Of a stretch of 56,498 nt of DNA, positions 29,382-49,992 are shown piece by piece. The position numbers were made by a program, and so were the translations under genes. The stretch lies in contig JAFXSQ010000050.1 in NCBI GenBank assembly GCA_017525525.1, positions 1-56,498 on the forward strand, in the 5' to 3' direction. This DNA comes from Lachnospiraceae bacterium (GTDB taxonomy: Bacteria; Bacillota; Clostridia; Lachnospirales; Lachnospiraceae). The notes under the pieces are model-generated. The model did no database searches, was not told where the DNA came from, and worked only from the letters and a program-made list of their open reading frames with translations. Position 1 is the first letter of the stretch. Each line of letters starts with the position of its first letter.

Positions 29382-29438
29382 CTTACGAGGTGTTTAATAG
29401 AGATATTAACATTAAAAAATACATAAAAGGAGGACTAT

Positions 29439-30137: not shown

Positions 30138-30149
30138 GAGGATAAAAAT

Positions 30150-31329: not shown

Positions 31330-31771
31330 ATGAGTGACAGTAAGGTTATAAATAAGAATAAAAAATACGGCGTATTGGAAATATGCATTCTCGTAGGCAA
31401 GATTCTCTTATGCGCCATGCTGCTGATCAATTTTTATATTTTTGTAGTGTACGGTCTGCTGAACAGAGGAAATATAATGGAGGGGGAAGATGTCTGGTTT
31501 GTTAACGGCTGGACTGTTGCGGACGGCGCCGAAGGCGAGAAAACTCTCAGCGCGACCCTTCCGAGGGACGTAAGCAATAATGACTGTTTTTACTTTAAAA
31601 CATGCAAGGACACAGCGGTATATAGGCATGAGTGAATTCAGTGAGAAAGCCAAGCAGCATGAGTATGCTGCAAAGGACAACAATATTGATTTCATAAAAG
31701 AGAACGCCGAGACATTTATCGGTGAGTATGAGGATATATGCAGAAAACTGGAAAAGTATTATTGCAGGTAA
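31330..31771 (+). pseudogene. Remnant of a sensor kinase: N-terminus joined to an Hpt tail by deletion
   Basis: The first frame (31330-31635, 101 aa) has one membrane helix (about 21-45) and the start of an outside domain with VWFVNGWTVADGA and FYFKTCKDTAVY. It then stops. Overlapping in another frame, a stretch reads YIGMSEFSEKAKQHEYAAKD and on to IDFIKENAETFIGEYEDICRKLEKYYCR, which looks like the last helices of an Hpt domain. I infer that a hybrid kinase of perhaps 900 residues lost its whole middle in a deletion with its junction near 31620. The tail overlaps the ABC ATPase start, as if kinase and exporter were once one coupled operon. Confidence 0.6.
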
Positions 31772-32454
31772 ATAATCTGTTCAAAGTATATGGCAGTGGT
31801 GAAAATGCCGTAAACGCCTTAGACGGAGTGGATATTTCGGTTTTTGAAGGGGAACTTCTGGTGATTCTCGGAAGCAGCGGCAGCGGTAAATCCACGCTTC
31901 TCAACCTGCTTGGAGGTATGGATATTCCAAGCAAAGGAGCGGTTTTGTTTCGGGAAACGGATATTGGGAAATACAGCGACAGGGAACTGACTTCTTATCG
32001 AAGAAATCATGTGGGTTTCGTGTTTCAGTCCTTCAATCTGATAGGGGAGCTTACGGTCCGTGAGAATGTTAAGCTGACTGCGGATCTTAAAAGCAATCCG
32101 AATAAAGTGGAGGAAACACTGGATATCCTGGGACTTTCCGAAAAAAAGGATAAGTATCCGTCACAGCTTTCAGGCGGACAACAGCAAAGAGTGGCGATAG
32201 CCAGAGCGCTCGCTTCAAATGCGGATATTCTGTTGTGTGACGAACCGACTGGCGCATTGGATTATGAAACCGGAAAGCAGATCCTGGTTCAGCTACAGGA
32301 TTTAACGAGAAACCACGGAAAAACCGTGATTATCGTCACGCATACGAAGGAGATTTCCATGATGGCAAATCGCGTGATAGTCATGAAGGACGGAAAGGTG
32401 ATACGTGAGGAGAACAATGCTTCTCCGGTTTCGGCGGATATGATTGACTGGTAA
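31738..32454 (+). CDS. ABC transporter ATPase, MacB/LolD type
   Basis: A 238-aa ATPase of the FtsE/LolD/MacB group, which powers mechanical or extrusion-type transporters. Walker A is GSSGSGKST, the Q-loop is FVFQSFNLIGELTV, the signature is LSGGQQQRVAIARAL, Walker B is ILLCDEPTGALD and the switch His is in IVTHTKEI. All catalytic residues are present. The ATG at 31738 lies inside the end of the kinase remnant; a TTG at 31762 is an alternative. The permease follows after two bases. With the NRPS just beyond, export of or immunity to its product is the likely job. Confidence 0.9.
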   Translation: MQKTGKVLLQVNNLFKVYGSGENAVNALDGVDISVFEGELLVILGSSGSGKSTLLNLLGGMDIPSKGAVLFRETDIGKYSDRELTSYRRNHVGFVFQSFNLIGELTVRENVKLTADLKSNPNKVEETLDILGLSEKKDKYPSQLSGGQQQRVAIARALASNADILLCDEPTGALDYETGKQILVQLQDLTRNHGKTVIIVTHTKEISMMANRVIVMKDGKVIREENNASPVSADMIDW

Positions 32455-32456
32455 AT

Positions 32457-35438
32457 ATGAAAAATAGCCTGTTTCGAGTGATCATAAAAAGATATGCCGG
32501 CTTGCTGGTATCAATGTTGTTGGTTTTGTCGCTGGGCTGCGGGCTCATGTCCGGCATGTCCAACGGTTTTTTGTCGTTGAAAGAAACCCTGGATGAGTAC
32601 ATTTCGGATATGAAATATCCTGATGTCGTGATCACAACAATGGAATATACAACAAAAGACCGGGCCGATTTGATACGCAGCTTGGAGGGTGTGGAAGAGG
32701 TAAATCCCAGACTGAAGGGGAATCTTGTTCTGATTGGCAGTGAGGGACGGTATATGTCAGCGGAGGCCTTGACCTACGAAGAACAGGATTTTTCGCAGTT
32801 TTATTATTGGGAAAAGACGGAAAAACAGGGGGAATACCCCATTCTCTTAGAGCATGCCTTCTGTGAAAACAATGATATTCATGCGGGAGATGAACTTAAC
32901 ATCAGACTCGGGGAAGAAGAAAGGGCATGTACGGTATACGGGGTGGTTTCCAGACCGGAAACGCTGTCAACGCCGAGTATCGGCAGTATGAAGGTTTCGG
33001 CGATGGATATCTGTTATATGTATGTTCCGGTGTCTGTTCTTATAAATGAAGTTGATCCGAAATATGTAAAAGCATATGCCGAGTGGGAAGAGAAAACCTC
33101 GGAATATGAAGAGGCAAAGGAGAAGGCGGATTCGGAACATGAAAAGGCTTTGGAAAAGATAGCAGATTCCGAAAAGGAACTGTCTGAAAAAGAAAAGGAA
33201 TTAAAGGATAAAAAAACTGAGGCAGAGGAACGTAAGGATTCTTTGATTTCGAATCGGGAGGAACTAAAACAGAAGCAACAGGAATTGGACGAATTTGAGT
33301 ATCAAATCTATATTAAGAAACAGGAGCTTGCCGATGGTGAGAAGGCGCTTGAACAGGCCCGGCTGACGATCGAGGATGAAAATCTGCTTCAGGAGGAAGA
33401 AGAAAAGCTTCGGCTCTATCAAAGTCAGATTCAGGACAGTGAGGAAAAGCTTGCCTACGGCAGGTGGGAGATAGAGAATTATCTTTTTGAAATTGAGCAA
33501 ACGATTGGGGAAATAGAGCAGGGAATCCGTGACTGGGAAGCGGAATTTGAAAAAGCGCGGGATCTTCTGAAGGAAAAGAAGGAGGAGCTCTCATCCGAAT
33601 GGGAGAAGACCGTAAAGGAACTGTCGCAGGCAGAAGAAGAGCTTCAGAGAGCAAAGACAAAGCTGGATGAATGGCCGGGATATGATGCTTACTGTAATCA
33701 GTTCCTGATACGGGTTTCGAAAGGAACAGATCCGGAAAACGTGCGTTGCAGGGCAGAGGAAGTTCTGAATGATATCGAAATCAAGGAAAGCTATACTTAC
33801 CTGACATCTCCGGTAAAGAATAAGATAGAGGATAAAAACCTGAATCCCCTTGAGATCATGACCATGTATGTTCCGATGGTTTACTTTGGCGTAGCGCTGA
33901 TTGTAATCTTCCTTTTCATGACTCTGTTAGTTCGATGGTGCCGAAGGGAGATTGGAATCCTGCGCGCTCTCGGTTTTTCCAAAGGAACGATAGCAGCGCA
34001 GTTTTGTACGGTGAGCTTGGTGGTTTCTCTGGGAGCGGTACTGCTTGGAGCTTTTTTGGGGTGGTTTGTGTCCAAAACAATCGGCGGATATTTTCAGCAT
34101 TTTTTTGACTTATACTATTTTAACAATAAATTTTATGGGGGACGAATTCTCCTTGCAGTGGTTGTGACGATCATGGTGGGCCAGGTTGCCACCTTGCTCA
34201 GCATGGGCTATGTGAATCATATTTCGCCTGCGGAGGCTATGACGCGTCCGACGCCGAAGGAAGCATTCAAATCAGAAGCATTCAAATCAGAAGCATTCAA
34301 ATCAGAAGCATTCAAACCATTTCATATAGTCGGATTTATGAAAAAAGGGAATTCATTTTTTAAGTATTCTCTCTTTTCGTTACTGCGGAATAAAGTACGT
34401 TTCTTCTTCTCAATCATTTGTCTTTCGGCTTCGGCTATGATGGTCTTCTCGGCATTCGCTTTCGGGGCTTCCAAGGACAAGATTTTGGTCAGCTATTACG
34501 AAGACAGAATTAATTATGACTGTGAAGCTTTTTTTGCTTATGAACCGCCGGCAGATAAAATCGGGAATATGAAGGAACTTGGAATACTCGGGGTTCCGGA
34601 GTCGGTCAGGTATTATAAAAAGATAATCTCTTTCGGTGGCATTTCGGAGGAGGCGGTATTCCAGGCTATTCCAAAGGATACCGATAAGGTGAGGATACTT
34701 GATTCCGACGAAAAAGAAATCCGACTTAAGGATGATGGGATAATACTTGAGAGTCATCTTGCCGAGAAGCTGGGGCTTAAGGTTGGAGATGCGGTTACGA
34801 TTGAAGGAGAGAGCTTTCTGTTGACCGGCATATCCCTGCAGCACGAGGGACGGGTTCAATACATTTCAACAGAAGCGGCAGAACGGCTCGGGAAACCGAT
34901 GATTTATTCGGTTATTATGAATGTGGAAAAGAAGCAGCAGGTTGCTCTGAGTCAGCGATTATCCGGGATTGAAGGATATGTCTTTGCGTCCTTTGTTGAC
35001 CGAAACTATCAATATTGGAAGAATGGCTTCGCCGCTTTCACTGCTTGTGTGGTTGCCATTATTTTGTTTTCAATACTGATCGGATATGTGATCATAACCA
35101 ATACGCTTCGGGCAAATCTTCTCGAGCAAAAGAGGGAGCTCTGCATATTGCGAACGTTGGGATTTCAGTGTTCCGAACTGTCCTTCAGGTTGTTTTTCCA
35201 GACGGCGATTTATTATATATGCGCCTGCCTGATCGGAATTCCCATGGGAGCGTTCGTTGCGAAAACGGCATTTATTCAAATGGAGACGGAAGGAAGAAGC
35301 TATCCCTTTGTAAATGAACCTTATTTATATCTTCAGACCATTATTCTGGTTCTCGGATATTTGACCATCGGGCATATCATGTCTATGAGAACATTGAAGA
35401 AATGGGATATTGTGGAAAGTGTGAAGGACAAAGAATAA
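32457..35438 (+). CDS. ABC transporter permease, FtsX/MacB type with long coiled coil
   Basis: A 993-aa membrane protein. Helix 1 is near residues 14-34. An outside MacB-like domain follows, then a Glu/Lys-rich coiled coil (about 205-405). Three helices come next (about 470-610), then a second copy of the scheme with helix near 655, a domain, and three helices near 860-975 (GYVIITNTLRANLLEQKRELCILRTLGF). The long periplasm-like coiled coil recalls permeases that push substrates through or off the envelope. A 15-bp repeat codes EAFKS repeats in the loop near residue 605. It is co-directional with, and 68 bases ahead of, the NRPS. Confidence 0.9.
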   Translation: MKNSLFRVIIKRYAGLLVSMLLVLSLGCGLMSGMSNGFLSLKETLDEYISDMKYPDVVITTMEYTTKDRADLIRSLEGVEEVNPRLKGNLVLIGSEGRYMSAEALTYEEQDFSQFYYWEKTEKQGEYPILLEHAFCENNDIHAGDELNIRLGEEERACTVYGVVSRPETLSTPSIGSMKVSAMDICYMYVPVSVLINEVDPKYVKAYAEWEEKTSEYEEAKEKADSEHEKALEKIADSEKELSEKEKELKDKKTEAEERKDSLISNREELKQKQQELDEFEYQIYIKKQELADGEKALEQARLTIEDENLLQEEEEKLRLYQSQIQDSEEKLAYGRWEIENYLFEIEQTIGEIEQGIRDWEAEFEKARDLLKEKKEELSSEWEKTVKELSQAEEELQRAKTKLDEWPGYDAYCNQFLIRVSKGTDPENVRCRAEEVLNDIEIKESYTYLTSPVKNKIEDKNLNPLEIMTMYVPMVYFGVALIVIFLFMTLLVRWCRREIGILRALGFSKGTIAAQFCTVSLVVSLGAVLLGAFLGWFVSKTIGGYFQHFFDLYYFNNKFYGGRILLAVVVTIMVGQVATLLSMGYVNHISPAEAMTRPTPKEAFKSEAFKSEAFKSEAFKPFHIVGFMKKGNSFFKYSLFSLLRNKVRFFFSIICLSASAMMVFSAFAFGASKDKILVSYYEDRINYDCEAFFAYEPPADKIGNMKELGILGVPESVRYYKKIISFGGISEEAVFQAIPKDTDKVRILDSDEKEIRLKDDGIILESHLAEKLGLKVGDAVTIEGESFLLTGISLQHEGRVQYISTEAAERLGKPMIYSVIMNVEKKQQVALSQRLSGIEGYVFASFVDRNYQYWKNGFAAFTACVVAIILFSILIGYVIITNTLRANLLEQKRELCILRTLGFQCSELSFRLFFQTAIYYICACLIGIPMGAFVAKTAFIQMETEGRSYPFVNEPYLYLQTIILVLGYLTIGHIMSMRTLKKWDIVESVKDKE
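34260..34316 (+). repeat. In-frame 15-bp tandem repeat in the permease gene
   Basis: The unit GAAGCATTCAAATCA occurs three times exactly and a fourth time as 12 bases. Each copy codes Glu-Ala-Phe-Lys-Ser. It sits in the linker between the two FtsX halves. Copy number can vary by slippage without breaking the frame. Confidence 0.95.
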
Positions 35439-35506: not shown

Positions 35507-38500
35507 ATGGAAAGCAATGCTCATAAGAAAAGGGAGGATTACCTTAAGTCCGCCGAATTTTTGAAGGATGCCGGATATTGGTCGGATTTGATCTCAGCAT
35601 CGGGGAGCTGCCTGAAATTTCATAATATAAAAACAAATAACCGGAATTCCGTAAGGATTGGTATAAAGGAAAAACGTGTTTCAGCTTTTGTCAAAGAGCG
35701 GGAGTGTTCTTTGCTTGACTTTTACGGCAGTGTTTTTTCGCTATATTTATCGCTGATAAACAGGCAGGAAGGTTTTCTGCTGAATACGAGTATTCCCGCA
35801 GAGGATGCCGGGTTGTCCTACAAAAAGACACTGCTTAAAATCTCCGTAAATCCACATGACAGTTTCTATGACTTGTTAAGAGCATTTCAAACCACTTACA
35901 GGGAGGCTTCCGAGCATACGATTGTCGATGTTGACCAATACCTGAAGAGGAAGGCTTCGTATTATTCGGTTTACGATTATTCTGTTTCAAATGAAAATTC
36001 AGGGGCAGTTAATGATGACGAAAATGCAATGACCCTGATTATTTTAGAAAGTGAATTGGAACTTAGGTATAATACAGGTCTTTTTTCGGATATCTATATA
36101 AGTCATATGGTAAAAAACCTGGAAAGTCTGACAGACAGAGTTCTCAGTGATCCGGAGCAGAGCATCGCAGATATTGATATTCTTTCACAAGAGGAGAAAG
36201 ATTGTCTTGCTGTCTTCTGCAGGGGAGAAAGCATTGAGGTTGACCGGGACAGGATGTTTGCAGAGTCCTTCCGCAGCTTTGCTGCTGCAAATCCGGATGC
36301 TTTGGCGGTAGATGACGGTGTTTCAAAAATCAGCTACGGAGAGCTTGAAAGAACAAGCAATTCCGTGGCCTATGATCTTTTAAATAATCATAAGATTGCT
36401 CGCGGTAGCCGCGTGGCATTAATGCTTCCGAGAAATTATCATTTTCCGGAGCTGGTCCTGGCTTTAAATAAGATCGGAGCTGCTTATGTTCCGATTGATA
36501 TGCAGTTTCCTTCGGCCAGAATAAGGCATATGCTCGATATAGCGCAGGCAGAACATCTTATCACAGTAAGGTCCGTCTCGGAAAGTCTGGATTTGGGCGT
36601 GAAGATTATCTGTCTTGAAGACCTTAAGTTTGACAATGATGCTCAAGTGGAGATTAAAAGCAGGAAGGAGGATCTGTTCGCAATCCTTTTTACCTCAGGC
36701 ACCTCAGGCATTCCCAAAGGAGTCATGTTTTATAACAGACAGTTTCCGTGGGCTGCCGCAGCGGTTAAAGAGGCCTTCCATGCTTCATGCGGAGATTGTA
36801 TGGGTTCTTTTTTCAGCTTCAGTTTTGTGGCATCTTACGTAGTCTGCGCGGCGCTTTATATGGGCTGCTCGCTCAGACTGTTCAACGAAGAGGAGCAAAA
36901 GAACAGTCTGCTGATGGTGAAGGCGCTTAAAGAAAACCATTTGAATAGCTTGATTCTTCCGCCGAATGTAGGAATTCCCATCTATGAAAGTGAAGAATTG
37001 AATTTGGATTATCTGGTTTTAGCCGGCGCGAAGCTGAATGAATTAAGCAAAAAAGAGAGACATACCAAGCTGGTTAATTTCTACGGAACCACAGAGGTTA
37101 TAGTGGCAATCAGCAAGATTTATGATCTTAAGAACAGTAAGGATGACAGAGTGCCTTTGGGAAAGCCGGTTGCGAATACATGGGCTTATATTCTGGATGA
37201 AAATAATCACCGCATGCCGGTGGGTGTCCCCGGGGAGATCTGCATATCCGGCGGACTCTGTACGCCGGGGTATTGTAATGATTCGGAGCTTACGGCTGAA
37301 AGCTTCGTGGAAAATCCTTATTCCGACTGTGAAGTTAACAGGATAATGTATCGTACCGGAGATATCGGCTATTATAATTTTGACGGTGAGATCGAGATTA
37401 TCGGGAGGGAAGACAACCAGTTGTCCGTCAGGGGCTTCAGAATCGAGTCCGATGAGATTATATCCGTAATGAAAGGCTTTGCGGAGATTTCCGATGTGTG
37501 CCTTGATGTTGAGAATGATACTTTAATCGCTTATTATGTCGCTTCGGATGAAGCGAATGCGGACCGGACAGCGAGTCAGACAGTAGATCGGATAAAAGAG
37601 GCTTTAGAAAAGGAGCTCCCCTTTTATATGATCCCGTCACTGTTTGTCAGACTGGATAAGATTCCGTTGAATATTAACGGAAAGATTGATAAATTCGGAC
37701 TGAAAAGGGCGGTTGCGCATGAGAACATTGAGATAGCGGACGAGACGCTTCGAATAGTTGTGGATGCGTTCAGGGAGGTTCTTAAAGCAGAGGTTGTCCT
37801 GCCGGATGACAGTTTCGTTGCCTTAGGCGGAAACTCACTGTCTGCGATGAAGCTGCAGTTATTGTTGCATGATAAGCTTAAAATCAGTCTTTCCTCTAAC
37901 GAATTTATCGGACTATCCACGCCGGTGGAGATTGCGGATTACATCAAAAATAATATCAACGCCCGTCCGGTGATTGACGAGAGCCGGTATTCTTTTGTTG
38001 CTCCGTGCCCCTTATCGGAATCTCAGTTGAACATTTATTTGGATGAAAGCGTGCATGACAGGGGGACCGCGTACAACAATCCGTTTACACTTACGTTCGG
38101 GGATAAAGAAAGCGCTTCTATCGATGAGATAAAAGCAGCGCTTAAGAAACTGTTTGAAGTGTATCCGGTGTTAAAGGCGCGCGTCATGAGTACGGAAGGA
38201 GAATTGTCACTGTTTTTTGACGCGGAGCCTGTGATTGAGGAAGGTTCCGTGGATGAGATTGGCTCGTTTGTTACACCCTTTGCTACGGATGAGAGCCTGT
38301 GCAGATTTCTTCTCGTCCGGGATGGCGAATCCACGGTCCTGTGCGCAGATTTCCACCACCTTATTTTTGACGGGGTTTCATTGAGTGTCTTCCTGAACAG
38401 TCTCTTTTCGGTTTTACGGGGAGAAGAAATAGATTACACGGATAAGGGATTGTTAAGAGAGCTTTCCTTTGAGGAGACCGTTCGTTCTTCGGGTATGAGT

Positions 38501-41500
38501 GAGGCTGAAGCTTTTTATGATCGTATGCTTGCCGATAGGGATGAAGTATACGAATTGCTCCCGTCGGTTTCAGTTGATGGTGGGGTGGATGGTTATGAGT
38601 ATATAAAGTCTTTTGACATGGATACGGAGCAGCTTGATTCTTTCCTTAAGCAGCATTCCGTCACACGCAATCAGTTTTTTGCGGGTGTCTTTGCCTATAC
38701 CCTGTCGAGATTCAGCGGTTCGGAGAAGGTTCTTTTTAATCTGCTCGAGGACGGAAGAGGTCATATGGATTTGTCGCATTCAGTCGGCATGTATGTGAAA
38801 ACGCTGCCAATCCTTATAGACTGTCGCAACAGGAACATTGACGACTTCCTTTCGTATACATCGGAGCTGGTGAATTCAATAATGAAATACGATCTGGTCC
38901 CGTTCCGAAGCATGGCTTCCAAATATGAACTGAACGCAGATATTCTGTTCCAGTATGCCCACACCATGTATATTGAGGCTGTGAACCGGGACGAAATGCA
39001 GATAGAACTCGAGGCGTTAAAGCATGACTTGGATGCGGAGTTGTCTGTGTATGTTTTCGAAAATGCGGATGATGGGATGATCTTAAGAATCCAAGCGTCT
39101 GCCCGTTACTCAAAGGATTTTGTCCGTCGTTTTGCGGAAGCCTATGAGCGCATCCTAAGGGAGATGTTGGAAGCGGAGCAATTAAAGGATATTCGCTTTA
39201 CTAAGGCAGAGGATTTGGAGTGTTTAAACGATTGGTGCAGGACGGAGAAACAGTTGCCCTATGGGGATATTCTGGATGCATTTAATTCTAATCTTTCGGA
39301 GTACGGCGGCAACAAGCTGGTTGAGTTTGAGGATGTCTCATATACCTTTGCGGAAGGCGCTTTTATCGCGGACAAGGTACGCCGGAAGCTTCTTTTGCTC
39401 GGGGTAACGAAGCAGGACAGAGTCGGCTTTTTAGTTCCGCGCTCGGAGCTTTATATGTTCTGCATTCTGGGAATTATGTCTGCGGGAGCGGTCTATGTTC
39501 CGTTGGATAATACCCTTCCGGATGAGCGAATCTCGTTTATGCTTAAGGATACCGAATCCCGTGTTCTTATCGTAAGTGATGATACATTGGCGCGCGCCGA
39601 AAAGCTTGATACCGGAAAGAACGATTTCAAAGCTCCGGTTATTTTGAATATCTCCGATATTATGAGGGGGAGAATCGGGACTCTTGTTTCCTTGCCGGTA
39701 AGCGAGGGCGAGATTGCATGTATCTTATATACAAGCGGCAGCGCCGGTATTCCTAAGGGCGTAAGAATCACAAGGAAGGCATTGTTATCGTTTATTGATT
39801 TTCAGGTAACGGATCTTAAGCTTAGGCCGGGAGATGTGTACGGGCTATATGCTTCCATAGGCTTTGATGTGTCAATGGGAGCGGTCTTCTCAGTGCTTTA
39901 TTCCGGCGCCTGTCTGGATGTTATTCCCGAAAGCAAAAAGAGGGATATCCGGGCCCTGAACCGTCATTTCGAGGAGCATCATGTTACGCACACCCATATT
40001 ACAACGCAGATTGCAAAGTTATTTATCAGAGAGATTAAGGAATCATCATTAAAGGTTCTTGTTACCGGCGGAGAAAAACTGGGTCAGATCGAAGGACACG
40101 GCAATTACAAAATCACGGACACTTATGGTCCTACCGAAGCCTGTGTATATGTAACAAGCATCGATTTAGAGGAGAAAATCGATTCCTCAAGTGTGGGATA
40201 TTTGCTGAGCAATATGAAGGCATATGTGCTGGACAGGGAACAAAGGAGAGTGCCGGTGGGGGCAGTCGGAGAGCTTTATCTGGCAGGACCGCAGCTTGCT
40301 GACGGATATCTGAATCGGGAAGATGAAACTGCCCGGGCATTTTTGACAAATCCGTTTGAAGATAATAAGGAATATGGGACCTTCTATGCTACAGGTGATG
40401 TGGCCAGGTTTTTGACGGACGGAACCCTTGATATCATAGGAAGACGTGACGGTCAGGTTAAAATACGCGGAAACCGGGTGGAATTATCAGAGGTTGAAGC
40501 GTGGATCCGGAAAATCGACGGTGTGAGAGATACGACTGCGCAAATAAGAAAACATGGCAGTAATAATGAATTGGTCGCATATGTTGTATCGGACAATCCG
40601 GATAATGAAACGGCGGCAAAAAGAGTTTCGGACTATCTGTCCGGACGTGTACCCGATTATATGGTTCCATCCTTTGTCGTCAGGCTGGATAGCATACCGC
40701 TGAATGTCAATGGAAAGGTAGACAGACGGGCCTTGCCGGAGGTTGATTCAGAACTGTTGCGCGCCAAATACGTAGCTCCGCGAAATGAGTTGGAGGAACG
40801 TGTTGTCCGTGAATTTGAAAAGGTTTTTGAATCGGATAGGATCGGCATAAATGACGATTTCATCCGGCTCGGCGGAGATTCCCTCACGGCAGTCAGATTG
40901 GTTTCGATTCTTGGGAATACAGGCATCACGGTAGGGGATATACTGCGCTTTAGGACACCCGCCGCTATTGCCGAATATCTGAAGGCCTGCACTGATATTT
41001 CTTCGGCTGATTTGGAAAAGTATTCTTTTGATGCGCCTTGTCCGTTATTGGAATCCCAGTTAAATGTATATCTGGATGAAAGCGTTCATGACAAGGGCAC
41101 GGCATATCATGTTCCTTATGCCATCCGTATAAAAGAGGATTATTCACCGGACGATGTAAGAAATGCGCTTCGGAAGTTGTTTATTTTCTACCCGGTTTTA
41201 AAGGGGCGGGTTCAGAATACGGAAGACTCTTTATCCCTGATCTTTGATGCGGAACCTGAAATCAGGGAAGGCTCTGTGGAGGAGATTGGATTCTTTGTGG
41301 CGCCGTTTGAAACAGATAGGAGTTTGTCGCGATTTATGATTGCGCGGGATGGTAATGACACTGTGCTATGTGTCGATTTTCATCATCTGATTTTTGACGG
41401 CGGTTCGATGAATGTATTCCTGGACAGTCTCCGTTCTGTCTTAATGGGGGAGGACATCGATTTTGTCGATAAAGGAATGTTAAGAGAGGCAGCTCTTGAG

Positions 41501-44500
41501 GAGTTACTCCGTTCTGAAGGCATGGAGGCAGCCGAGGCATTTTACAATCGCATGCTTGCCGACAGGGAAGAGGTTTATCCGTTGTTGCCTTCCGTAGATG
41601 GGGCAGGGGAATCCTTTGAGTATATACACACCTTCGACCTTAAGAAGAAAGAGTTGGATTCTTTTTTACGAAAGCGCTCTGTCACACGCAATCAGTTTTT
41701 TACCAGTGTCTTTGCCTATACCCTGTCAAGGTTTAGCGGCTTGGAAAAGGTGCTTTTCAATCTGATTGAAGATGGCAGAGGTCATATGGATCTGTCCCGA
41801 TCTGTCGGAATGTATGTAAAGACGCTGCCTGTTTTGATTGATTGTAAAAACAGGGATACCGATACCTTTCTTTCGGAGACATCGGAACTGATGAATTCCA
41901 TAATGAAATACGACCTTGTTCCGTTCCGCACACTGGCTTCCAAATATGAACTGAACGCAGACATTCTGTTCCAATATGCCCATGCCATGTACATGGATGC
42001 GGTGAATATGGATAAATTGCAGATGGAACTCGAAATGTTAAAGCATGACCTGGATGCGGATTTGTCTGTCTATGTTTTTGAAAATGCGGACGACGGGCTG
42101 AGCTTAAGAATCAGGTCTTCTGCCCGTTACTCACAGGATTTCGTACGGCATTTTGCGCAAGTCTATGAGCGCATCTTAAGGGATATGATGCGGGCAGAGC
42201 AGTTAAAGGATATACATTTCACGACGGAAGAAGATCTTGAGCGATTGAATGAATTGAATAAAACGGATGCGGATATTCCTTATGTGGACATTCTGGATGC
42301 CTTCAATGTTAATTTGGCACGGTATCCGGGCAACAGGTTGGTTGAGTATGATGATGCTTCATACACCTTTGAAGAAGGCGCTTTTATCGCAAATCAGGTA
42401 CGGCAGAAGCTACTCGCATCAGGCGTAAGGGCGGAGGATAGAGTCGGCTTTTTGGTTCCACGCTCGGAACTGTATATGTTTTGTGTTCTGGGTATCATGT
42501 CTGCCGGCGCCTCGTACGTTCCTATGGATGATAAACTTCCCGATGAGCGTATAGCTTTTATGCTTAAGGATACTGAAGCCCGCGTTCTTATTGTCAGCGA
42601 TGATACCTTGGAGCGTGCCGAAAAGCTCGATACGGATACAAGGAAGCTTTTGAATATCTCGGATATTATGAAGGAGGAGATTGGGACGCTTGCTTCTCTG
42701 CCTGTAACCGTAGGCGATACGGCATGCATCTTATATACCAGCGGCAGCACCGGTATTCCGAAGGGAGTAAAGATAACAAGAGATTCGCTGAGGTATTTTA
42801 TCGATTTTCATGTTAAGGATTTGGATATCCGTCCGGGAGATGTATACGGATTGTACGCATCTATCGGGTTTGACGTTTCTATGGCTGCGATGTTCTCCGT
42901 AATTTATACCGGCGCGTGCATGAATGTGATTCCAAACTGTAAGAAGCTGGATATTCGGGCATTGGCCGAGCATATTACGACACATCACATAACACATTCC
43001 TATATTACGACGCAGATTGCCAAGCTGCTCATAAGTCAGGCTGAGGATACAAGCTTAAAGGTTCTGGTTGCCGGCGGAGAAAAACTGGGGCAGATCAGAG
43101 ATATCAGGAGATACAGGATTGTCGATGCATACGGTCCCACTGAAGCCTGTGTATACGTGATCAGTGCCGATACACGGAATAAAATTGATTCAAGCAGCGT
43201 GGGATATGTACAGAGCAATGTAAAAGCATATATCTTAGACAGCGAGCTTAGACGTGTGCCGATCGGTGCGGTCGGAGGTTTATATCTGTCCGGTCCGCAG
43301 CTTGCCGACGGTTACCTGAACAGGCCGGAGGAAACCGACAGAGCCTTCATTAGAAATCCGTTTGAAGATAGTGAAAGATACGGAAGCCTGTATTATACCG
43401 GAGATGTGGCAAGAATACTTCCGGACGGAACCTACGGAATAGTCGGCCGAAGGGACAGTCAGGTAAAGATCAGGGGAAATCGTGTTGAATTATCCGAGGT
43501 TGAAGCTGTCATCCGAAAGATGGATATCGTAAAAGACGTGACAGTTAAGACCTTTAGTGTCGGCGGTAACAATGAGCTTACAGCCTACATTGTGTCCGAT
43601 GAGACTGATTCTAAGGTCCTTAAAGATAAGGTTTCGGACTATCTGTCCGGACGTGTTCCGGATTATATGGTTCCTTCCTTTGTGATCCGGATGGACAGTA
43701 TCCCCTTAAGCATCAACGGGAAGGTGGATAAGCGAGCGTTACCGGAGGTTGATTTCAATCTTCTGCATGCCGAGTATGTTGCGCCGCGAAATGAGCTTGA
43801 GGAACGCATAGTCCGCGAATTTGAACGGGTATTTGAACTGGACAGAGTTGGCATAAATGATGATTTTGTCAGCCTTGGCGGGGATTCTCTGACAGCGGTT
43901 AGGTTGCTTGCCGGTTTAAGGGACAGCGGCATTACGATTGCCGACATCTTAAGCCTGCGCACGCCGGCAGCCATAGCGGCAGGGGCAGAGCTGCTGCCGG
44001 ATTTGGATTTGTATTCCATAGAGAACGGTTGTCCGCTGAGCAACTCGCAGACTATGTTCTACCACATTGCCGAAAAAAAGCCGAAAAAGGATGCCAGTCT
44101 GATCCCGTCCGTCATTTCTGTCGACAAAAAGTATACCGACGAACAGATTATACAGGCGCTTGATGTTGTATTTACGGCGCATCCCGTACTGACCATGCAT
44201 GTCGAAAAAAGAGACGATGGTCCTTACCTGGTAAAGGGTTCAAAACCGGTTGTCACAAAGGGCGTATTCAGTATGGTGAATGTGTTCACGCACATGACAT
44301 CGGATTTTAGTATCTACAAAAGCCTGGCAAGATTTGTGATCGTGAGGACACCCGGAAAATGCTACCTTGTATCGGTTTTCCATCATGTTATCTTTGATCT
44401 TTTCTCACATATTGTGTTCCGGCGAGTTTTTTACGATGCGTTGGAAGGCATTGTGCCGGACCATGTGGATACAGAATTTTTAAAGGTGCCTGCTTTACAG

Positions 44501-45232
44501 CAACAGGTCCGAAACGGAAAGGATTTTGAGCGGATTGAGAAGGAAGCCCGGGGGTTACTTAGCAATCTTAAGGATGTTGGCTTCTACATAAACCCGGGTA
44601 AGAAGGGAAAGGCCGGTTTTATCATGCGCGATATTGACGTGAAGCCGGAGAAGGTAAAACAATTCGCGGATAAGGTCGGTATCGACAAGACCGTTTTGGT
44701 TACGGCAGTCATGGCAGCCACCTTATCAAAACTGTCAGAAAGGGAGGATGTATTCTTCGGTTTTATCGAAAACGGACGTGACAGACTCAAAAGCTTTGAC
44801 TCCATCGGTTTATTTATCAATGCGATTCCGCTGGTTGCGCATGTGAATCATCAGGATATGGGCGACTTTCTTAAGAAGCTGTCCGAGCAATACTATAATA
44901 TAGCCAGGGACAGTCATTATCCTTTTGTTCCGCTGGCGCTCGAGTATAATGTTTCTCCCGTTATTCTGTTCCAGTTCTTCCCGGACTGGATCGCTGATGA
45001 AGGAGACTATGCCCAGCTTTCTGTCAAAGAGTGGATGCTCAATATGGCCCTCTCGACCCTGAAAGATCTTGTGGTCGAGGCGCTGACTGAGGTGGTTGAA
45101 GGAAAAGACGGTTATACACTTAGAATCTACCATTCGGGATACTATTCCGGGAAGATGATGAAGCTGCTGGCAGACACTTATCAGGAAACATTGGTTGAGA
45201 TGATAAACTATGATTGGGGCGTAACCGAGTAG
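35507..45232 (+). CDS. Nonribosomal peptide synthetase, [C]-A-T-C-A-T-C-A-T-C
   Basis: A 3241-aa modular enzyme that would join three activated units. Residues 1-230 match only the C-terminal part of a condensation domain. A1 (about 255-690) has FTSGTSGIPKG, YGTTE, YRTGD and NINGK, and T1 has LGGNSL (Ser near 775). C2 (about 825-1240) has HHLIFDG, A2 (to about 1730) YTSGSAGIPKG and T2 LGGDSL (near 1790). C3 has HHLIFDG, A3 YTSGSTGIPKG and T3 LGGDSL (near 2792). The last C4 has HHVIFDL. There is no thioesterase, reductase or epimerase domain. The substrate loop FDVSMGA (A2) or FDVSMAA (A3) keeps the amino-group Asp, while A1 reads FSFVASY. A TTG 24 bases earlier is possible, but the ATG at 35507 follows AAGGAGA. 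No phosphopantetheinyl transferase is in the window. Confidence 0.95.
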   Translation: MESNAHKKREDYLKSAEFLKDAGYWSDLISASGSCLKFHNIKTNNRNSVRIGIKEKRVSAFVKERECSLLDFYGSVFSLYLSLINRQEGFLLNTSIPAEDAGLSYKKTLLKISVNPHDSFYDLLRAFQTTYREASEHTIVDVDQYLKRKASYYSVYDYSVSNENSGAVNDDENAMTLIILESELELRYNTGLFSDIYISHMVKNLESLTDRVLSDPEQSIADIDILSQEEKDCLAVFCRGESIEVDRDRMFAESFRSFAAANPDALAVDDGVSKISYGELERTSNSVAYDLLNNHKIARGSRVALMLPRNYHFPELVLALNKIGAAYVPIDMQFPSARIRHMLDIAQAEHLITVRSVSESLDLGVKIICLEDLKFDNDAQVEIKSRKEDLFAILFTSGTSGIPKGVMFYNRQFPWAAAAVKEAFHASCGDCMGSFFSFSFVASYVVCAALYMGCSLRLFNEEEQKNSLLMVKALKENHLNSLILPPNVGIPIYESEELNLDYLVLAGAKLNELSKKERHTKLVNFYGTTEVIVAISKIYDLKNSKDDRVPLGKPVANTWAYILDENNHRMPVGVPGEICISGGLCTPGYCNDSELTAESFVENPYSDCEVNRIMYRTGDIGYYNFDGEIEIIGREDNQLSVRGFRIESDEIISVMKGFAEISDVCLDVENDTLIAYYVASDEANADRTASQTVDRIKEALEKELPFYMIPSLFVRLDKIPLNINGKIDKFGLKRAVAHENIEIADETLRIVVDAFREVLKAEVVLPDDSFVALGGNSLSAMKLQLLLHDKLKISLSSNEFIGLSTPVEIADYIKNNINARPVIDESRYSFVAPCPLSESQLNIYLDESVHDRGTAYNNPFTLTFGDKESASIDEIKAALKKLFEVYPVLKARVMSTEGELSLFFDAEPVIEEGSVDEIGSFVTPFATDESLCRFLLVRDGESTVLCADFHHLIFDGVSLSVFLNSLFSVLRGEEIDYTDKGLLRELSFEETVRSSGMSEAEAFYDRMLADRDEVYELLPSVSVDGGVDGYEYIKSFDMDTEQLDSFLKQHSVTRNQFFAGVFAYTLSRFSGSEKVLFNLLEDGRGHMDLSHSVGMYVKTLPILIDCRNRNIDDFLSYTSELVNSIMKYDLVPFRSMASKYELNADILFQYAHTMYIEAVNRDEMQIELEALKHDLDAELSVYVFENADDGMILRIQASARYSKDFVRRFAEAYERILREMLEAEQLKDIRFTKAEDLECLNDWCRTEKQLPYGDILDAFNSNLSEYGGNKLVEFEDVSYTFAEGAFIADKVRRKLLLLGVTKQDRVGFLVPRSELYMFCILGIMSAGAVYVPLDNTLPDERISFMLKDTESRVLIVSDDTLARAEKLDTGKNDFKAPVILNISDIMRGRIGTLVSLPVSEGEIACILYTSGSAGIPKGVRITRKALLSFIDFQVTDLKLRPGDVYGLYASIGFDVSMGAVFSVLYSGACLDVIPESKKRDIRALNRHFEEHHVTHTHITTQIAKLFIREIKESSLKVLVTGGEKLGQIEGHGNYKITDTYGPTEACVYVTSIDLEEKIDSSSVGYLLSNMKAYVLDREQRRVPVGAVGELYLAGPQLADGYLNREDETARAFLTNPFEDNKEYGTFYATGDVARFLTDGTLDIIGRRDGQVKIRGNRVELSEVEAWIRKIDGVRDTTAQIRKHGSNNELVAYVVSDNPDNETAAKRVSDYLSGRVPDYMVPSFVVRLDSIPLNVNGKVDRRALPEVDSELLRAKYVAPRNELEERVVREFEKVFESDRIGINDDFIRLGGDSLTAVRLVSILGNTGITVGDILRFRTPAAIAEYLKACTDISSADLEKYSFDAPCPLLESQLNVYLDESVHDKGTAYHVPYAIRIKEDYSPDDVRNALRKLFIFYPVLKGRVQNTEDSLSLIFDAEPEIREGSVEEIGFFVAPFETDRSLSRFMIARDGNDTVLCVDFHHLIFDGGSMNVFLDSLRSVLMGEDIDFVDKGMLREAALEELLRSEGMEAAEAFYNRMLADREEVYPLLPSVDGAGESFEYIHTFDLKKKELDSFLRKRSVTRNQFFTSVFAYTLSRFSGLEKVLFNLIEDGRGHMDLSRSVGMYVKTLPVLIDCKNRDTDTFLSETSELMNSIMKYDLVPFRTLASKYELNADILFQYAHAMYMDAVNMDKLQMELEMLKHDLDADLSVYVFENADDGLSLRIRSSARYSQDFVRHFAQVYERILRDMMRAEQLKDIHFTTEEDLERLNELNKTDADIPYVDILDAFNVNLARYPGNRLVEYDDASYTFEEGAFIANQVRQKLLASGVRAEDRVGFLVPRSELYMFCVLGIMSAGASYVPMDDKLPDERIAFMLKDTEARVLIVSDDTLERAEKLDTDTRKLLNISDIMKEEIGTLASLPVTVGDTACILYTSGSTGIPKGVKITRDSLRYFIDFHVKDLDIRPGDVYGLYASIGFDVSMAAMFSVIYTGACMNVIPNCKKLDIRALAEHITTHHITHSYITTQIAKLLISQAEDTSLKVLVAGGEKLGQIRDIRRYRIVDAYGPTEACVYVISADTRNKIDSSSVGYVQSNVKAYILDSELRRVPIGAVGGLYLSGPQLADGYLNRPEETDRAFIRNPFEDSERYGSLYYTGDVARILPDGTYGIVGRRDSQVKIRGNRVELSEVEAVIRKMDIVKDVTVKTFSVGGNNELTAYIVSDETDSKVLKDKVSDYLSGRVPDYMVPSFVIRMDSIPLSINGKVDKRALPEVDFNLLHAEYVAPRNELEERIVREFERVFELDRVGINDDFVSLGGDSLTAVRLLAGLRDSGITIADILSLRTPAAIAAGAELLPDLDLYSIENGCPLSNSQTMFYHIAEKKPKKDASLIPSVISVDKKYTDEQIIQALDVVFTAHPVLTMHVEKRDDGPYLVKGSKPVVTKGVFSMVNVFTHMTSDFSIYKSLARFVIVRTPGKCYLVSVFHHVIFDLFSHIVFRRVFYDALEGIVPDHVDTEFLKVPALQQQVRNGKDFERIEKEARGLLSNLKDVGFYINPGKKGKAGFIMRDIDVKPEKVKQFADKVGIDKTVLVTAVMAATLSKLSEREDVFFGFIENGRDRLKSFDSIGLFINAIPLVAHVNHQDMGDFLKKLSEQYYNIARDSHYPFVPLALEYNVSPVILFQFFPDWIADEGDYAQLSVKEWMLNMALSTLKDLVVEALTEVVEGKDGYTLRIYHSGYYSGKMMKLLADTYQETLVEMINYDWGVTE

Positions 45233-47005: not shown

Positions 47006-48088
47006 ATGAATTTAGCATATTCGGTTACACAGAAGGAATTATTTGACATATTAATCAACATAGCGCCGATAAGACCTGTATTTATCTGGGGTGCCCCGGG
47101 CATAGGCAAGTCGGCTTTGGTCCAGCAGTTTGCGGATGAGGTCGGCATGGAGTGCGTATCCATGCTCGGCAGTCAGCTTGCGCCGGAGGACATCATAGGC
47201 ATTCCGAGGATAAGCGGAGAGACCTCCGAGTTTCTTCCGCCGAAGATGATAGCAAGGAAGGAGCCGTATGTGTTATTCCTCGATGAGCTGAACGCCTGCT
47301 CGCAGGAGGTGCAGAAGGCATTTTACAGCCTTATACATGAGCACAGAGTAGGTGAATATCACCTGCCCGAAGGAAGCGTAGTTATAGGAGCGGGAAACCG
47401 TTCGCAGGATGGCGCCATTGTTAAGACGATGTCTACCGCATTAGTCAATCGTATGTTTCATGTGCAGCTTGTGGCAGATAGCGCGCAGTGGCTTGATTGG
47501 GCCTATGAAAACCATATCCATCCATGGGTTATCGATTACATTACCCAAAGGCCCGATCATCTGTTCAGCGAACCACCCAAGACAGAGGAGCCTTATTCTA
47601 CACCGAGAAGCTGGCACATGCTCAGCGATGCATTGAAGGAATATCATGCCGGCGAGGAGGGTATAAATGTACCGCAGGACATACTCCGTGTTCTCGCCTT
47701 CGGAAGTGTAAGCGCGTCACATGCAGGAATGTTCCTGGCATTTACAAGAACCATAGGCAACAAGAGTATCCTGGCTGATATAATAAAGGGAGATGCGCGC
47801 TGGCCTGCAGGTCCAGAGGAAAGGGATGTTCTCTACTTCCTTGCCCAGTCCTTCAGGGCAAGACTCATGCAGGAGCTACCAAAGAGCAAGGATAAGTTAA
47901 ACAAGGAAACGCAGTTCTTTACCCATCGCGCAAAGGCGCTTATCAAGGAACTCTCACAGATAAACTATGAGCTTGCGCAGATGGTTGTAAGCGCAGATGC
48001 AGATGAAGTTCTTCCGGACTGGTTTATGGTAGAGATAGTACGCGATCTTCCGAGACTTGTGAGCAGACAGGATAAGAAGGTGAGCTAG
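47006..48088 (+). CDS. MoxR-type AAA+ ATPase
   Basis: A 360-aa chaperone-like ATPase. Walker A is GAPGIGKSA (about 28-36), Walker B VLFLDEL (about 91-97), sensor 1 lies in VVIGAGNRSQDG, and an arginine finger region is in STALVNRMFHV. MoxR proteins work with von Willebrand (VWA) partners to insert metals or mature complexes. Such a partner is encoded immediately downstream with a one-base overlap of stop and start. The C-terminal 130 residues are helical and family-specific. The ATG follows AAAGGAAA at a somewhat long spacing. Confidence 0.92.
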   Translation: MNLAYSVTQKELFDILINIAPIRPVFIWGAPGIGKSALVQQFADEVGMECVSMLGSQLAPEDIIGIPRISGETSEFLPPKMIARKEPYVLFLDELNACSQEVQKAFYSLIHEHRVGEYHLPEGSVVIGAGNRSQDGAIVKTMSTALVNRMFHVQLVADSAQWLDWAYENHIHPWVIDYITQRPDHLFSEPPKTEEPYSTPRSWHMLSDALKEYHAGEEGINVPQDILRVLAFGSVSASHAGMFLAFTRTIGNKSILADIIKGDARWPAGPEERDVLYFLAQSFRARLMQELPKSKDKLNKETQFFTHRAKALIKELSQINYELAQMVVSADADEVLPDWFMVEIVRDLPRLVSRQDKKVS

Positions 48089-49992
48089 TGGCGAAAAAAG
48101 ATGCAAAAAAGGCTATTAAGAAACGCAAACCGAATGAAGAAGCTCTATGCGCCGGCATGGAGATTATAAGGCAAAGTCCTTTATTCTCAAGGTTAAACGG
48201 ATGCTATTGCATAAAATCAGGGAACGAGTTGGGAAAGACGGCTGCGATTGCGAGGGTTGATGACCGTTTGAATGAGAACATATGGCTTAACAGCGATGTG
48301 GCCTTGACGCCGAACGAGTGGGCTTATGTTATCGCTCACTGTCTGCTTCACTTTGCATTCGGGCATTTTGATAAGGACCATCTTCCCGGATATGACAAGG
48401 TATCGGAGGACGGTAAGACAGAGCATGTAACAAAGTTTGAACCGGAGGTATGGAATCACGCTTGTGATATCTTCATAGCGAGGTTTCTTTCGGATATCAA
48501 ATTCGGCAAGCCGGTGTATTCCGATGCCGAAGATACGGGATACATGGGAAAAAACGAGTTGCAGATATATGAATACTTGATGCAGAATGATGCGCCGGGA
48601 AACATATACTGCGGAACGTCAATGCCCGGAATGATGGATATGAAGGGGCTGGATAAGCCGCTGACATACGAAAAAATGCATTACCATAGGAGGGCCACGG
48701 AGACGTTTGCGCATGCCTTGGCGTATTCGGTATCGGCGGCGGTAAGCCGCGCGGGAGGGCATGACTATAACAGAAGAAGCCGTGTTACAAGAGCCCGGGA
48801 GGCGGCCGACTGGTTTATAAACCATTATCCGCTCCTGGGCGGGCTTGCCGCAGGCTTTGAGGTTATAGAGAACCATAAGCTCTGCGAGGAGGAGCATATC
48901 GCAGTGGCTGCCGTAAATGCACGTGACAGGGAGATATACGTCAACCCGGCAGCAGGCCTAAGTCAGGAGGAGCTCAAGTTTGTGCTTGCTCATGAGTATC
49001 TGCACGCGGGCCTGCAGCACAGTGAACGCTGTCAGGGACGTGACAGGTATCTGTGGAATGTGGCCTGCGATTTTGTGATAAACGGTTGGCTGAGCGAGCT
49101 TAAAATCGGAGAGATGCCGGGGGATGGCATGCTCTATGATCCGGAGTTTAAGGATTGGTCGGCAGAGGAGATATATGATTATATTGTGCAGGACATAAGA
49201 AAATACAGAAAGCTCAATACTCTGCGAGGCTATGGAATGGGCGATGTGCTCGAGCCCGGTTTTGGCGACGGTTCAGGCACAGACTCGGGGAAAGGATTCT
49301 TAAGTTCAAGAGGCAGCATGAGTGTGGACGATTTCTGCAGAAGCGCTTTGCAGCAGGGGCTTGAGTATCATATCGTGACAGGAAGGGGCGTTATTCCTGC
49401 CGGTTTGGTACAGGAGATACGCGCCCTATCCATGCCGCCTATCCCTTGGGATGTAGAGCTTGGAAAATGGTTCGATATGCATTTCAAACCGCTTGAAGCA
49501 AGAAGGACTTACGCAAGGCCGAGCCGCAGACAGGGCAGCACACCGGACATAGCAAGACCGAGATATATTCCGGCTGATATACCCGAGTACAGCAGGACCT
49601 TCGGAGTGGTGGTAGATACTTCGGGTTCGATGAGTGTAGAGCTGATAGGCTGTTCTTTGGGGGCGATAGCAAGCTACTCAGCCGCAAAGGAGGTGCCTTA
49701 CGCGAGGGTTGTGTTCTGTGATGCTGAAGCTTATGATGCAGGATACATAAGCCCGGAGGATATAGCGGGCAGAGTCGAGGTAAAGGGACGAGGAGGAACC
49801 GTTCTGCAACCGGCCGTTAACCTGCTTCAGGAAGCGAAAGACTTTCCGAAAGACGCACCGATACTGATCATAACCGACGGGATGATAGAAAACGACCTTA
49901 GAGTGAAAAGAGAGCATGCCTATCTGATACCTAAAGGAAGGAGCTTGCCCTTTAGAGAAAAGGGGAAGGTGTTTTACTTTGGGGAACGGTGA
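48088..49992 (+). CDS. VWA-domain protein with duplicated metallopeptidase-like region
   Basis: A 634-aa cytoplasmic protein. The first part (about 20-150) has an AHCLLHFAFGH motif and VWNHACDIFIARFL. The second (about 270-350) repeats the scheme with AHEYLHAGLQH and LWNVACDFVINGWL. The HExxH of a zinc peptidase is intact only in the second copy. The C-terminus (about 505-634) is a VWA-like domain with the metal-site motif DTSGSMS and IITDG. This fits the DUF2201/VWA-like family that pairs with MoxR. It starts at GTG 48088, whose G is the last base of the moxR stop, after AAGGTGAG. The pair probably remodels or activates an unknown client. Confidence 0.9.
   Translation: MAKKDAKKAIKKRKPNEEALCAGMEIIRQSPLFSRLNGCYCIKSGNELGKTAAIARVDDRLNENIWLNSDVALTPNEWAYVIAHCLLHFAFGHFDKDHLPGYDKVSEDGKTEHVTKFEPEVWNHACDIFIARFLSDIKFGKPVYSDAEDTGYMGKNELQIYEYLMQNDAPGNIYCGTSMPGMMDMKGLDKPLTYEKMHYHRRATETFAHALAYSVSAAVSRAGGHDYNRRSRVTRAREAADWFINHYPLLGGLAAGFEVIENHKLCEEEHIAVAAVNARDREIYVNPAAGLSQEELKFVLAHEYLHAGLQHSERCQGRDRYLWNVACDFVINGWLSELKIGEMPGDGMLYDPEFKDWSAEEIYDYIVQDIRKYRKLNTLRGYGMGDVLEPGFGDGSGTDSGKGFLSSRGSMSVDDFCRSALQQGLEYHIVTGRGVIPAGLVQEIRALSMPPIPWDVELGKWFDMHFKPLEARRTYARPSRRQGSTPDIARPRYIPADIPEYSRTFGVVVDTSGSMSVELIGCSLGAIASYSAAKEVPYARVVFCDAEAYDAGYISPEDIAGRVEVKGRGGTVLQPAVNLLQEAKDFPKDAPILIITDGMIENDLRVKREHAYLIPKGRSLPFREKGKVFYFGER

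What the first reader, a model, noticed from the sequence alone, without database searches (positions are those of the whole stretch)
35507..45232. Three-module NRPS with no release domain beside a dedicated exporter
The protein has three A-T pairs and ends in a condensation domain, with no thioesterase or reductase. Seen directly: Walker-like A-domain motifs, three LGG(N/D)SL carrier sites and condensation HHxxxD motifs. By family knowledge, a terminal C domain can release the chain by condensing it with an amine or by cyclising it. I infer a small tri-unit peptide of unknown structure, exported by the adjacent ABC pump.
Basis: partly seen in the sequence, partly recalled or inferred. Interest (0 to 1): 0.8.

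Follow-up and report, generated by a model that had tools for sequence, protein, structure and literature searches.

The report
Peptide synthetase shared with rumen methanogens
A bacterium carries a large peptide-building enzyme that ends in an unusual release domain, probably starts from a building block that is not an amino acid, and belongs to a family shared with methane-producing archaea of ruminant guts, from which part of it seems to have come.

Summary
Window 35507-45232 is one intact 3241-residue NRPS with three A-T pairs, a terminal condensation domain (Ct, HHVIFDLFS) and no TE or reductase. (1) The protein opens with a half condensation domain (C-lobe only), and the A domain behind it lacks Asp235 and the A5 proline. 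This holds in 24 of 24 distinct half-C-linked A domains; C-linked ones have Asp in 56 of 57 and Pro in 56 of 57. These are reported keto-acid determinants (PMC11253843, passages), so the product is probably an acyl-capped dipeptide unit, not a plain tripeptide. (2) Close relatives occur in Lachnospiraceae and Methanobrevibacter. The bacterial starter segment nests inside the archaeal ones (AU p 0.006); the Ct does not. (3) Modules 2 and 3 are about 71% identical, a duplication. Exporter linkage is supported: an ABC pair lies beside 11 of 14 Ct-ended genes (window included) and 0 of 3 TE-ended ones; the permease and this synthetase are each in 1 of 37 congeneric genomes. Chemistry is inferred. 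Verdict: new variant of a known kind.

The parts
31738..32454 (+). ABC exporter ATPase (238 aa, MacB/LolD-like)
   Evidence: Pfam ABC_tran 4e-35; 82-84% identical relatives beside the NRPS in L050-L053, 45-49% in six Methanobrevibacter loci
32457..35438 (+). FtsX-type ABC permease (993 aa)
   Evidence: Pfam FtsX, 2 stretches; 2-base gap to the ATPase; found in 1 of 37 congeneric genomes, the window's own, at E 1e-40
35507..36241 (+). N-terminal half condensation domain (C-lobe only, no HHxxxD)
   Evidence: Pfam Condensation 365-455 only; model pLDDT 86 matches C domains of LgrA and Txo1/Txo2; aligned with 17 relatives
36251..37741 (+). A1 starter adenylation domain; code VAVIVAFVAK, no Asp235, A5 motif YGTTE instead of YGPTE
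37742..37966 (+). T1 carrier (LGGNSL, residue 773)
37982..39226 (+). C2 condensation domain (HHLIFDG)
39272..40771 (+). A2 adenylation domain; code DVGHVGTVYK
40778..40996 (+). T2 carrier (LGGDSL)
41009..42256 (+). C3 condensation domain, 71.5% identical to C2
42278..43777 (+). A3 adenylation domain, 70.9% identical to A2; code DVAYVGAVYK
43784..44002 (+). T3 carrier (LGGDSL)
44003..45229 (+). Terminal condensation domain Ct (HHVIFDLFS), proposed release domain
   Evidence: C-domain fold (model pLDDT 78, best match LgrA); groups with the terminal C domains of 15 other genes

Best explanation
A linear assembly line. A1 loads a carboxylic acid without an alpha-amino group, most likely an alpha-keto acid, onto T1. 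C2-A2-T2 and the duplicated C3-A3-T3 add two amino acids. The terminal C domain then releases the acyl-dipeptidyl chain by passing it to a free small nucleophile, most likely an amine. The ABC ATPase-FtsX pair exports the product. The half-C cannot catalyse and probably braces A1. The starter segment came into Lachnospiraceae-type bacteria from a Methanobrevibacter-type archaeon, and the third module arose later by duplication. Shown by sequence: domain order, loss of Asp235 and of the A5 Pro, conservation of Ct, near-identity of modules 2 and 3, nesting of the starter segment in the tree, exporter adjacency. Inferred: substrates, release chemistry, export, role of the half-C, direction of transfer.
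For: Architecture. Starter: 24 of 24 distinct half-C-linked A domains (21 groups at 95% identity) have V/I/M at 235 and T/M/S/L at the A5 proline; of 57 C-linked ones 56 have D and 56 have P. The review PMC11253843 (passages) reports Ile for the Asp and Met for a conserved Pro in the keto-acid domain StsA; LgrA P483, the Pro it names, falls on YGPTE if the chain numbering is offset by 2 (my count). Release: HHxxxD is kept in 13 of 13 terminal C domains aligned. Relatives with the same starter end instead in a TE (L061 and L121 above the Pfam cut-off, L116 below it), so Ct stands where a release domain stands. Amine release by a C domain has precedents: glidonin C13 with putrescine (PMC10587159, passages) and OaaC (PMC13142362, abstract). 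Exporter: adjacent ABC in 5 of 6 bacterial loci with upstream sequence (window included) and 6 of 8 Ct-ended Methanobrevibacter loci; 0 of 3 TE-ended. The permease is in 1 of 37 congeners, and so is this synthetase: three others have one C domain each, only 21-24% identical. Origin. The half-C profile hits 1 of 398 genomes of the window's phylum; half-C-A1 hits 14 of 138 genomes of one methanogen family (other query and threshold, and 7 of the 14 were already handled).
Against: Asp235 loss is not proof: McyG, which the same review describes as Phe-activating, has Val there. No ketoreductase follows A1, unlike the keto-acid depsipeptide modules described in PMC11355689 (passages). The pocket codes match no substrate I can name. 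No amine-supplying gene was recognised next to the synthetase. Ct contradicts a simple whole-gene transfer: the bacterial Ct are sister to, not inside, the Methanobrevibacter Ct, and grouping them with L119 and L078 is rejected (p 0.005). L047, the nearest NRPS, has no ABC pair nearby, nor do L072 and L119 (only about 4 kb examined for L119). The archaeal permeases are only about 20-22% identical and lie downstream, not upstream.
Confidence: 0.45

Rival explanations
1. Ct cyclises, or oligomerises and cyclises, the chain, as in fungal NRPSs with a terminal C domain. If A1 takes an alpha-hydroxy acid, its hydroxyl could attack the thioester and give a cyclic depsipeptide, like enniatin or beauvericin synthetase (non-catalytic C1, hydroxy-acid A1, releasing C3).
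For: The two-module archaeal form (half-C-A-T-C-A-T-C) parallels the fungal order C1-A1-T1-C2-A2-MT-T2a-T2b-C3 (PMC5457498, start of abstract, passages). A review (PMC11546977, passages) calls the N-terminal C of such fungal enzymes non-catalytic and gives C3 condensation, length control and macrocyclisation. Hydroxy-acid A domains also lack Asp235 (PMC11253843). The Ct motif HHxxFD[LA]xS (L072 has G) fits the HXXXDXXS that PMC11546977 gives for CT, but it says canonical C domains share that motif.
Against: The hydroxy-acid domains in the review have Ala or Gly at 235, not V/I/M. A keto-acid starter has no head nucleophile. Ct was not compared with fungal CT sequences in a tree.
Confidence: 0.27
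2. Ct hydrolyses the thioester, or works with another enzyme in trans (a separate carrier or TE), so the product is a free acid or is extended elsewhere.
For: A fungal CT, that of IvoA, hydrolyses its substrate (PMC11546977, passage). The genome has another NRPS on contig C1.
Against: No PP-binding or TE domain was found in the 29 other window genes scanned with Pfam. The complete Ct-ended relatives stop within 4 residues of the end of the C profile match.
Confidence: 0.15
3. A1 takes an ordinary or beta-amino acid by another binding mode, so the product is a true tripeptide unit.
For: McyG has Val at 235 and is described as Phe-activating (PMC11253843). By overall sequence A1 is nearest to amino-acid A domains (LgrA, TycA, GrsA).
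Against: Two changes together, at 235 and at the A5 Pro, in 24 of 24 distinct domains. The beta-amino-acid domains in the review passages keep the Asp.
Confidence: 0.13

Closest known systems
Methanobrevibacter ruminantium M1 NRPSs mru_0068 and mru_0351 (Leahy 2010, PMC2812497, passages)
   Same: Archaeal NRPSs of a rumen Methanobrevibacter beside efflux genes; products unknown
   Different: M1's two are described with a terminal thioesterase (a supplementary legend says thioester reductase for mru_0068) and MatE pumps. The relatives here end in a C domain, mostly beside an ABC FtsX pair. Their sequences were not compared.
Fungal cyclodepsipeptide synthetases (beauvericin, enniatin) with terminal C domain
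   Same: Non-catalytic N-terminal C, first A without Asp235, terminal C (PMC5457498, PMC11546977, PMC11253843, passages)
   Different: Half-C only, no methyltransferase or tandem carrier, V/I/M rather than Gly at 235, prokaryotic; product unknown
Keto-acid A domains (StsA)
   Same: Aliphatic residue for Asp235 and a non-proline at the A5 position
   Different: No ketoreductase in the protein; StsA was not among the 60 best PDB matches shown
Amine-releasing C domains: glidonin C13, OaaC
   Same: A C domain can pass an acyl or peptidyl thioester to a free amine
   Different: C13 is followed by A*-T-TE; OaaC is free-standing and starter-like; neither was compared in a tree here
Second NRPS of the same genome (contig C1)
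   Same: Same genome
   Different: C-A-T-C-A-T-reductase beside a MATE pump; its two C domains fall far away in the tree, on long branches

Membership tests
NRPS | C, A and T domains with intact motifs in one open frame | tested here: met
Keto-acid-activating A domain (StsA type) | Aliphatic residue at 235 | tested here: met
   V14, I9, M1 of 24 half-C-linked A domains
Keto-acid-activating A domain (StsA type) | Non-proline at the conserved A5 Pro | tested here: met
   T17, M3, S3, L1 of 24
Keto-acid depsipeptide module (A-KR-T) | Embedded ketoreductase | tested here: not met
   No such Pfam family in the protein
Keto-acid-activating A domain (StsA type) | Activates keto acids in vitro | not testable with these tools
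   Needs ATP-PPi exchange
Fungal CT-type release NRPS | Terminal C domain, no TE | tested here: met
Fungal CT-type release NRPS | Ct falls in the fungal CT clade | not tested
   No fungal sequences were fetched; Foldseek ranks LgrA first
Fungal CT-type release NRPS | Macrocyclises the chain | not testable with these tools
   Needs product chemistry
Amine-releasing terminal C | Passes the chain to a free amine | not testable with these tools
   Needs enzyme assay
Archaeal (Methanobrevibacter) NRPS lineage | Starter A-T-C2 nested inside the archaeal sequences | tested here: met
   archaeal monophyly rejected, p 0.006 (group named after the tree was seen)
Archaeal (Methanobrevibacter) NRPS lineage | Terminal C nested inside the archaeal sequences | tested here: not met
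   Sister group, not nested
Cluster-dedicated exporter | Adjacency kept in relatives and joint presence or absence | tested here: met
   exceptions L047, L072, L119
Cluster-dedicated exporter | Transports the product | not testable with these tools
   Needs deletion or transport assay

The most novel reading that the evidence does not exclude
A ruminant-gut NRPS lineage evolved in methanogenic archaea, with a half-C plus keto- or hydroxy-acid starter module and a terminal C release domain, a prokaryotic parallel to enniatin-type synthetases. It passed into Lachnospiraceae-type bacteria, where it gained a module by duplication and an exporter. Methanogens and fermenting bacteria in one gut would then make related acyl-capped peptides, and transfer ran against the bacteria-to-archaea direction proposed in print.
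Probability: 0.35. Interest if true: 0.8.

Novelty: new variant of a known kind. Interest (0 to 1): 0.6.

Why it matters
Archaeal NRPSs have been proposed to come from bacteria (PMC2812497 and PMC8241843, passages). Here the bacterial starter segment sits inside the archaeal diversity, which points the other way for this family. The family also gives a small, testable terminal-C system with an unusual conserved starter. One genome record, Lachnospiraceae bacterium AC2029 (a cultured isolate as I recall), holds two copies, so the metabolite could be sought directly.

Tried and rejected
Rejected: an assembly-truncated NRPS. The stop is followed by an unrelated gene, and relatives in other assemblies end at the same point. 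Rejected: pseudogene. A viral-contig scan with the whole protein found no relative. A class-wide search (391 genomes) with a 3000-residue part gave, outside the window's own genome, matches of 26-33% identity in 27 genomes. A family search with Ct (299 genomes) hit only the own genome and one 26% match. An empty-site comparison with 17 kb of G180 aligned at DNA level only 29425-31168, so it fixes no island edge on the right. Substrate prediction for A2 and A3 was dropped because the codes match nothing I can name. antiSMASH and MIBiG were not available.

Limits. I treat it as Lachnospiraceae-type because its nearest synthetases are; that is not shown. Hosts of loci rest on record titles. The relatives were found with two short peptide patterns from C2 and C3, so absence elsewhere is not shown. 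L049-L052 are nearly identical and count as one lineage. Both clade tests were named after a tree was seen. Rows dropped: L048, L049 and L057 from the exporter count (no upstream sequence); A domains of 430 residues or less; C pieces of 330 or less; starter segments that are broken or lack a domain (for example L065, L072, L078); L051; near-duplicate or odd rows from the alignments (18 of 21; 13 of 16; 18 of 21).

Full report
What is there. The gene 35507-45232 encodes one 3241-residue NRPS without internal stops. Domain order: half-C, A1, T1, C2, A2, T2, C3, A3, T3, Ct. Pfam finds only AMP-binding, AMP-binding_C, Condensation and PP-binding at E 0.001. Ct has the condensation-domain fold: its model (mean pLDDT 78) matches LgrA and TycC over nearly its whole length, and HHxxxD is intact. 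The first 245 residues are only the C-terminal lobe of a C domain (Pfam positions 365-455; model pLDDT 86). Their one NCBIfam match, far below its cut-off, is the N-terminus of L-aminoadipate-semialdehyde dehydrogenase. Modules 2 and 3 are about 71% identical in C and A.

Surroundings. An ABC ATPase (31738-32454) and an FtsX permease (32457-35438) run in the same direction, 2 and 68 bases before their next genes. Among 37 congeneric genomes (own included) the permease is found at E 1e-40 only in the window's genome. Condensation domains occur in 4 of the 37; the three others have one match each, only 21-24% identical to this synthetase. The genome also has a phosphopantetheinyl transferase on another contig (212 aa, Sfp-like by my reading) and a second NRPS, C-A-T-C-A-T-reductase with a MATE pump.

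Relatives. A scan of the species-genome collection with an alignment of C2 and C3, by two peptide patterns, returned 32 loci. Eight are titled Lachnospiraceae, Eubacterium or Clostridiales (L047-L053, L057), 20 Methanobrevibacter and 4 Thermoplasmata or Methanomethylophilaceae (the last at 30-34% identity). Many titles name rumen or other ruminant-gut samples or RUG bins. The complete bacterial copies (L047, L049-L053) have the window's ten-domain order. Five Methanobrevibacter copies (L056, L058, L059, L068, L076) have the two-module form half-C-A-T-C-A-T-C. Of ten archaeal-locus proteins scanned, one is suggestive of an archaeal host (an archaellum-motor-like ATPase in L076, below the family cut-off); the others do not discriminate, so host assignment rests on titles. 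G+C of the synthetases goes with that of their loci (about 49-50% in the bacterial relatives, 45.8% in the window; 26-37% in Methanobrevibacter).

Starter. In 24 of 24 distinct A domains that follow a half-C (21 groups at 95% identity), position 235 is V, I or M and the proline of the A5 motif YGPTE is T, M, S or L. One more, L078, whose half-C is cut off by a frame break, agrees. Of 57 distinct A domains that follow a full C, 56 have Asp and 56 have Pro; the exception for both is L066. A review (PMC11253843, passages) reports Ile for Asp235 and Met for a conserved Pro in the keto-acid domain StsA, and says that mutating that Pro in LgrA raised keto-acid activity slightly. It also reports Phe-activating McyG with Val at 235, and hydroxy-acid domains with Ala or Gly. 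I therefore read the starter as an acid without an alpha-amino group, keto acid first. This is inference; no ketoreductase is present.

Release and export. Terminal C domains of 16 genes (8 bacterial, 8 Methanobrevibacter) group together with support 94/95, not starred; with 17 rows it was 98/94. Methanobrevibacter synthetases with the same starter can end in a thioesterase instead: L061 and L121 (a C-family domain then a TE, above the Pfam cut-off) and L116 (TE below it). So Ct looks like an alternative release domain, not a truncation. Exporter beside Ct-ended genes: window, L050, L051, L052, L053 yes and L047 no; L056, L058, L059, L068, L076, L078 yes and L072, L119 no. Beside TE-ended ones: L061, L116, L121 no. 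The flanks examined were of unequal length (about 4 kb for L119). L050-L052 are nearly identical, so the positive bacterial cases are about three lineages. The archaeal permeases are about 20-22% identical to the window's, so the exporter was not clearly inherited together with the synthetase.

Origin. In a tree of starter A-T-C2 segments (30 rows) the 7 bacterial sequences form a clade (100/100) inside the 14 Methanobrevibacter ones, with three nested starred branches, to L054/L070, L060 and L055. Holding the 14 together is rejected, p 0.006. The C3 domains nest among the bacterial C2 domains, as expected of a duplication there. Against a simple story, the bacterial Ct are sister to all the Methanobrevibacter Ct, and grouping them with L119 (the same gene as L055) and L078 is rejected, p 0.005. 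A mosaic gene or an unsampled donor would explain both. The half-C profile (E 1e-15) hits 1 of 398 genomes of the window's phylum, its own. Half-C-A1 (E 1e-100) hits 14 of 138 genomes of the family of G721, the genome of L059, and 4 of 19 of its genus; the query and threshold differ, and 7 of the 14 were handled. Two papers take the opposite direction for archaeal NRPSs in general: PMC2812497 (passages) and PMC8241843 (passages). The latter had already noted NRPS similarity between rumen Euryarchaeota and Firmicutes.

Mechanism. Ct most likely passes the acyl-dipeptidyl chain to a small free amine, as reported for glidonin C13 with putrescine (PMC10587159, passages) and for the free-standing gut enzyme OaaC (PMC13142362, abstract). 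The main rival is cyclisation as in fungal synthetases: the archaeal two-module order, with a half-C in front and a first A without Asp235, resembles the beauvericin and enniatin enzymes (PMC5457498, passages; PMC11546977, passages).

Novelty. In the listings of searches (15 of 63 listed; 5 of 7,357 listed) I saw no title or abstract start describing this half-C and terminal-C family or an archaea-to-bacteria path for it; of the listed papers I read passages of some. The library lacks most subscription journals, so this is weak evidence of absence.

Noticed in passing
G000:C1 (L007:9559-18220): Second NRPS, C-A-T-C-A-T-reductase, with a MATE pump just upstream.
   Followed up: partly
window 51740-53350: One 536-aa frame carries a GNAT acetyltransferase stretch (63-142) and an RsgA GTPase domain (274-448), an odd fusion.
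   Followed up: no
L047:4027-7454: The nearest NRPS relative lacks the ABC pair and instead has a radical SAM gene, an unknown 227-aa gene and a SpoIIE-type phosphatase directly upstream; Leahy 2010 reports serine phosphatases beside a methanogen NRPS.
   Followed up: partly
L073, L074, L075, L077: NRPS modules on contigs titled Thermoplasmata or Methanomethylophilaceae, although PMC8241843 says only Methanobrevibacter genomes in its archaeal set had NRPS clusters; binning was not checked.
   Followed up: no
L065, L071, L072, L078: NRPS genes of one Methanobrevibacter assembly (RUG11428) are split by many frame breaks, either sequencing errors or decay.
   Followed up: no
window 47006-49992: AAA ATPase plus DUF2201/VWA gene pair right of the NRPS; the AAA gene is in 4 of 37 congeneric genomes, own included.
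   Followed up: partly
G000:C27 (L009:111-1833): Phosphopantetheinyl transferase (212 aa) next to a 293-aa frame that was not scanned, on a contig without either NRPS.
   Followed up: no
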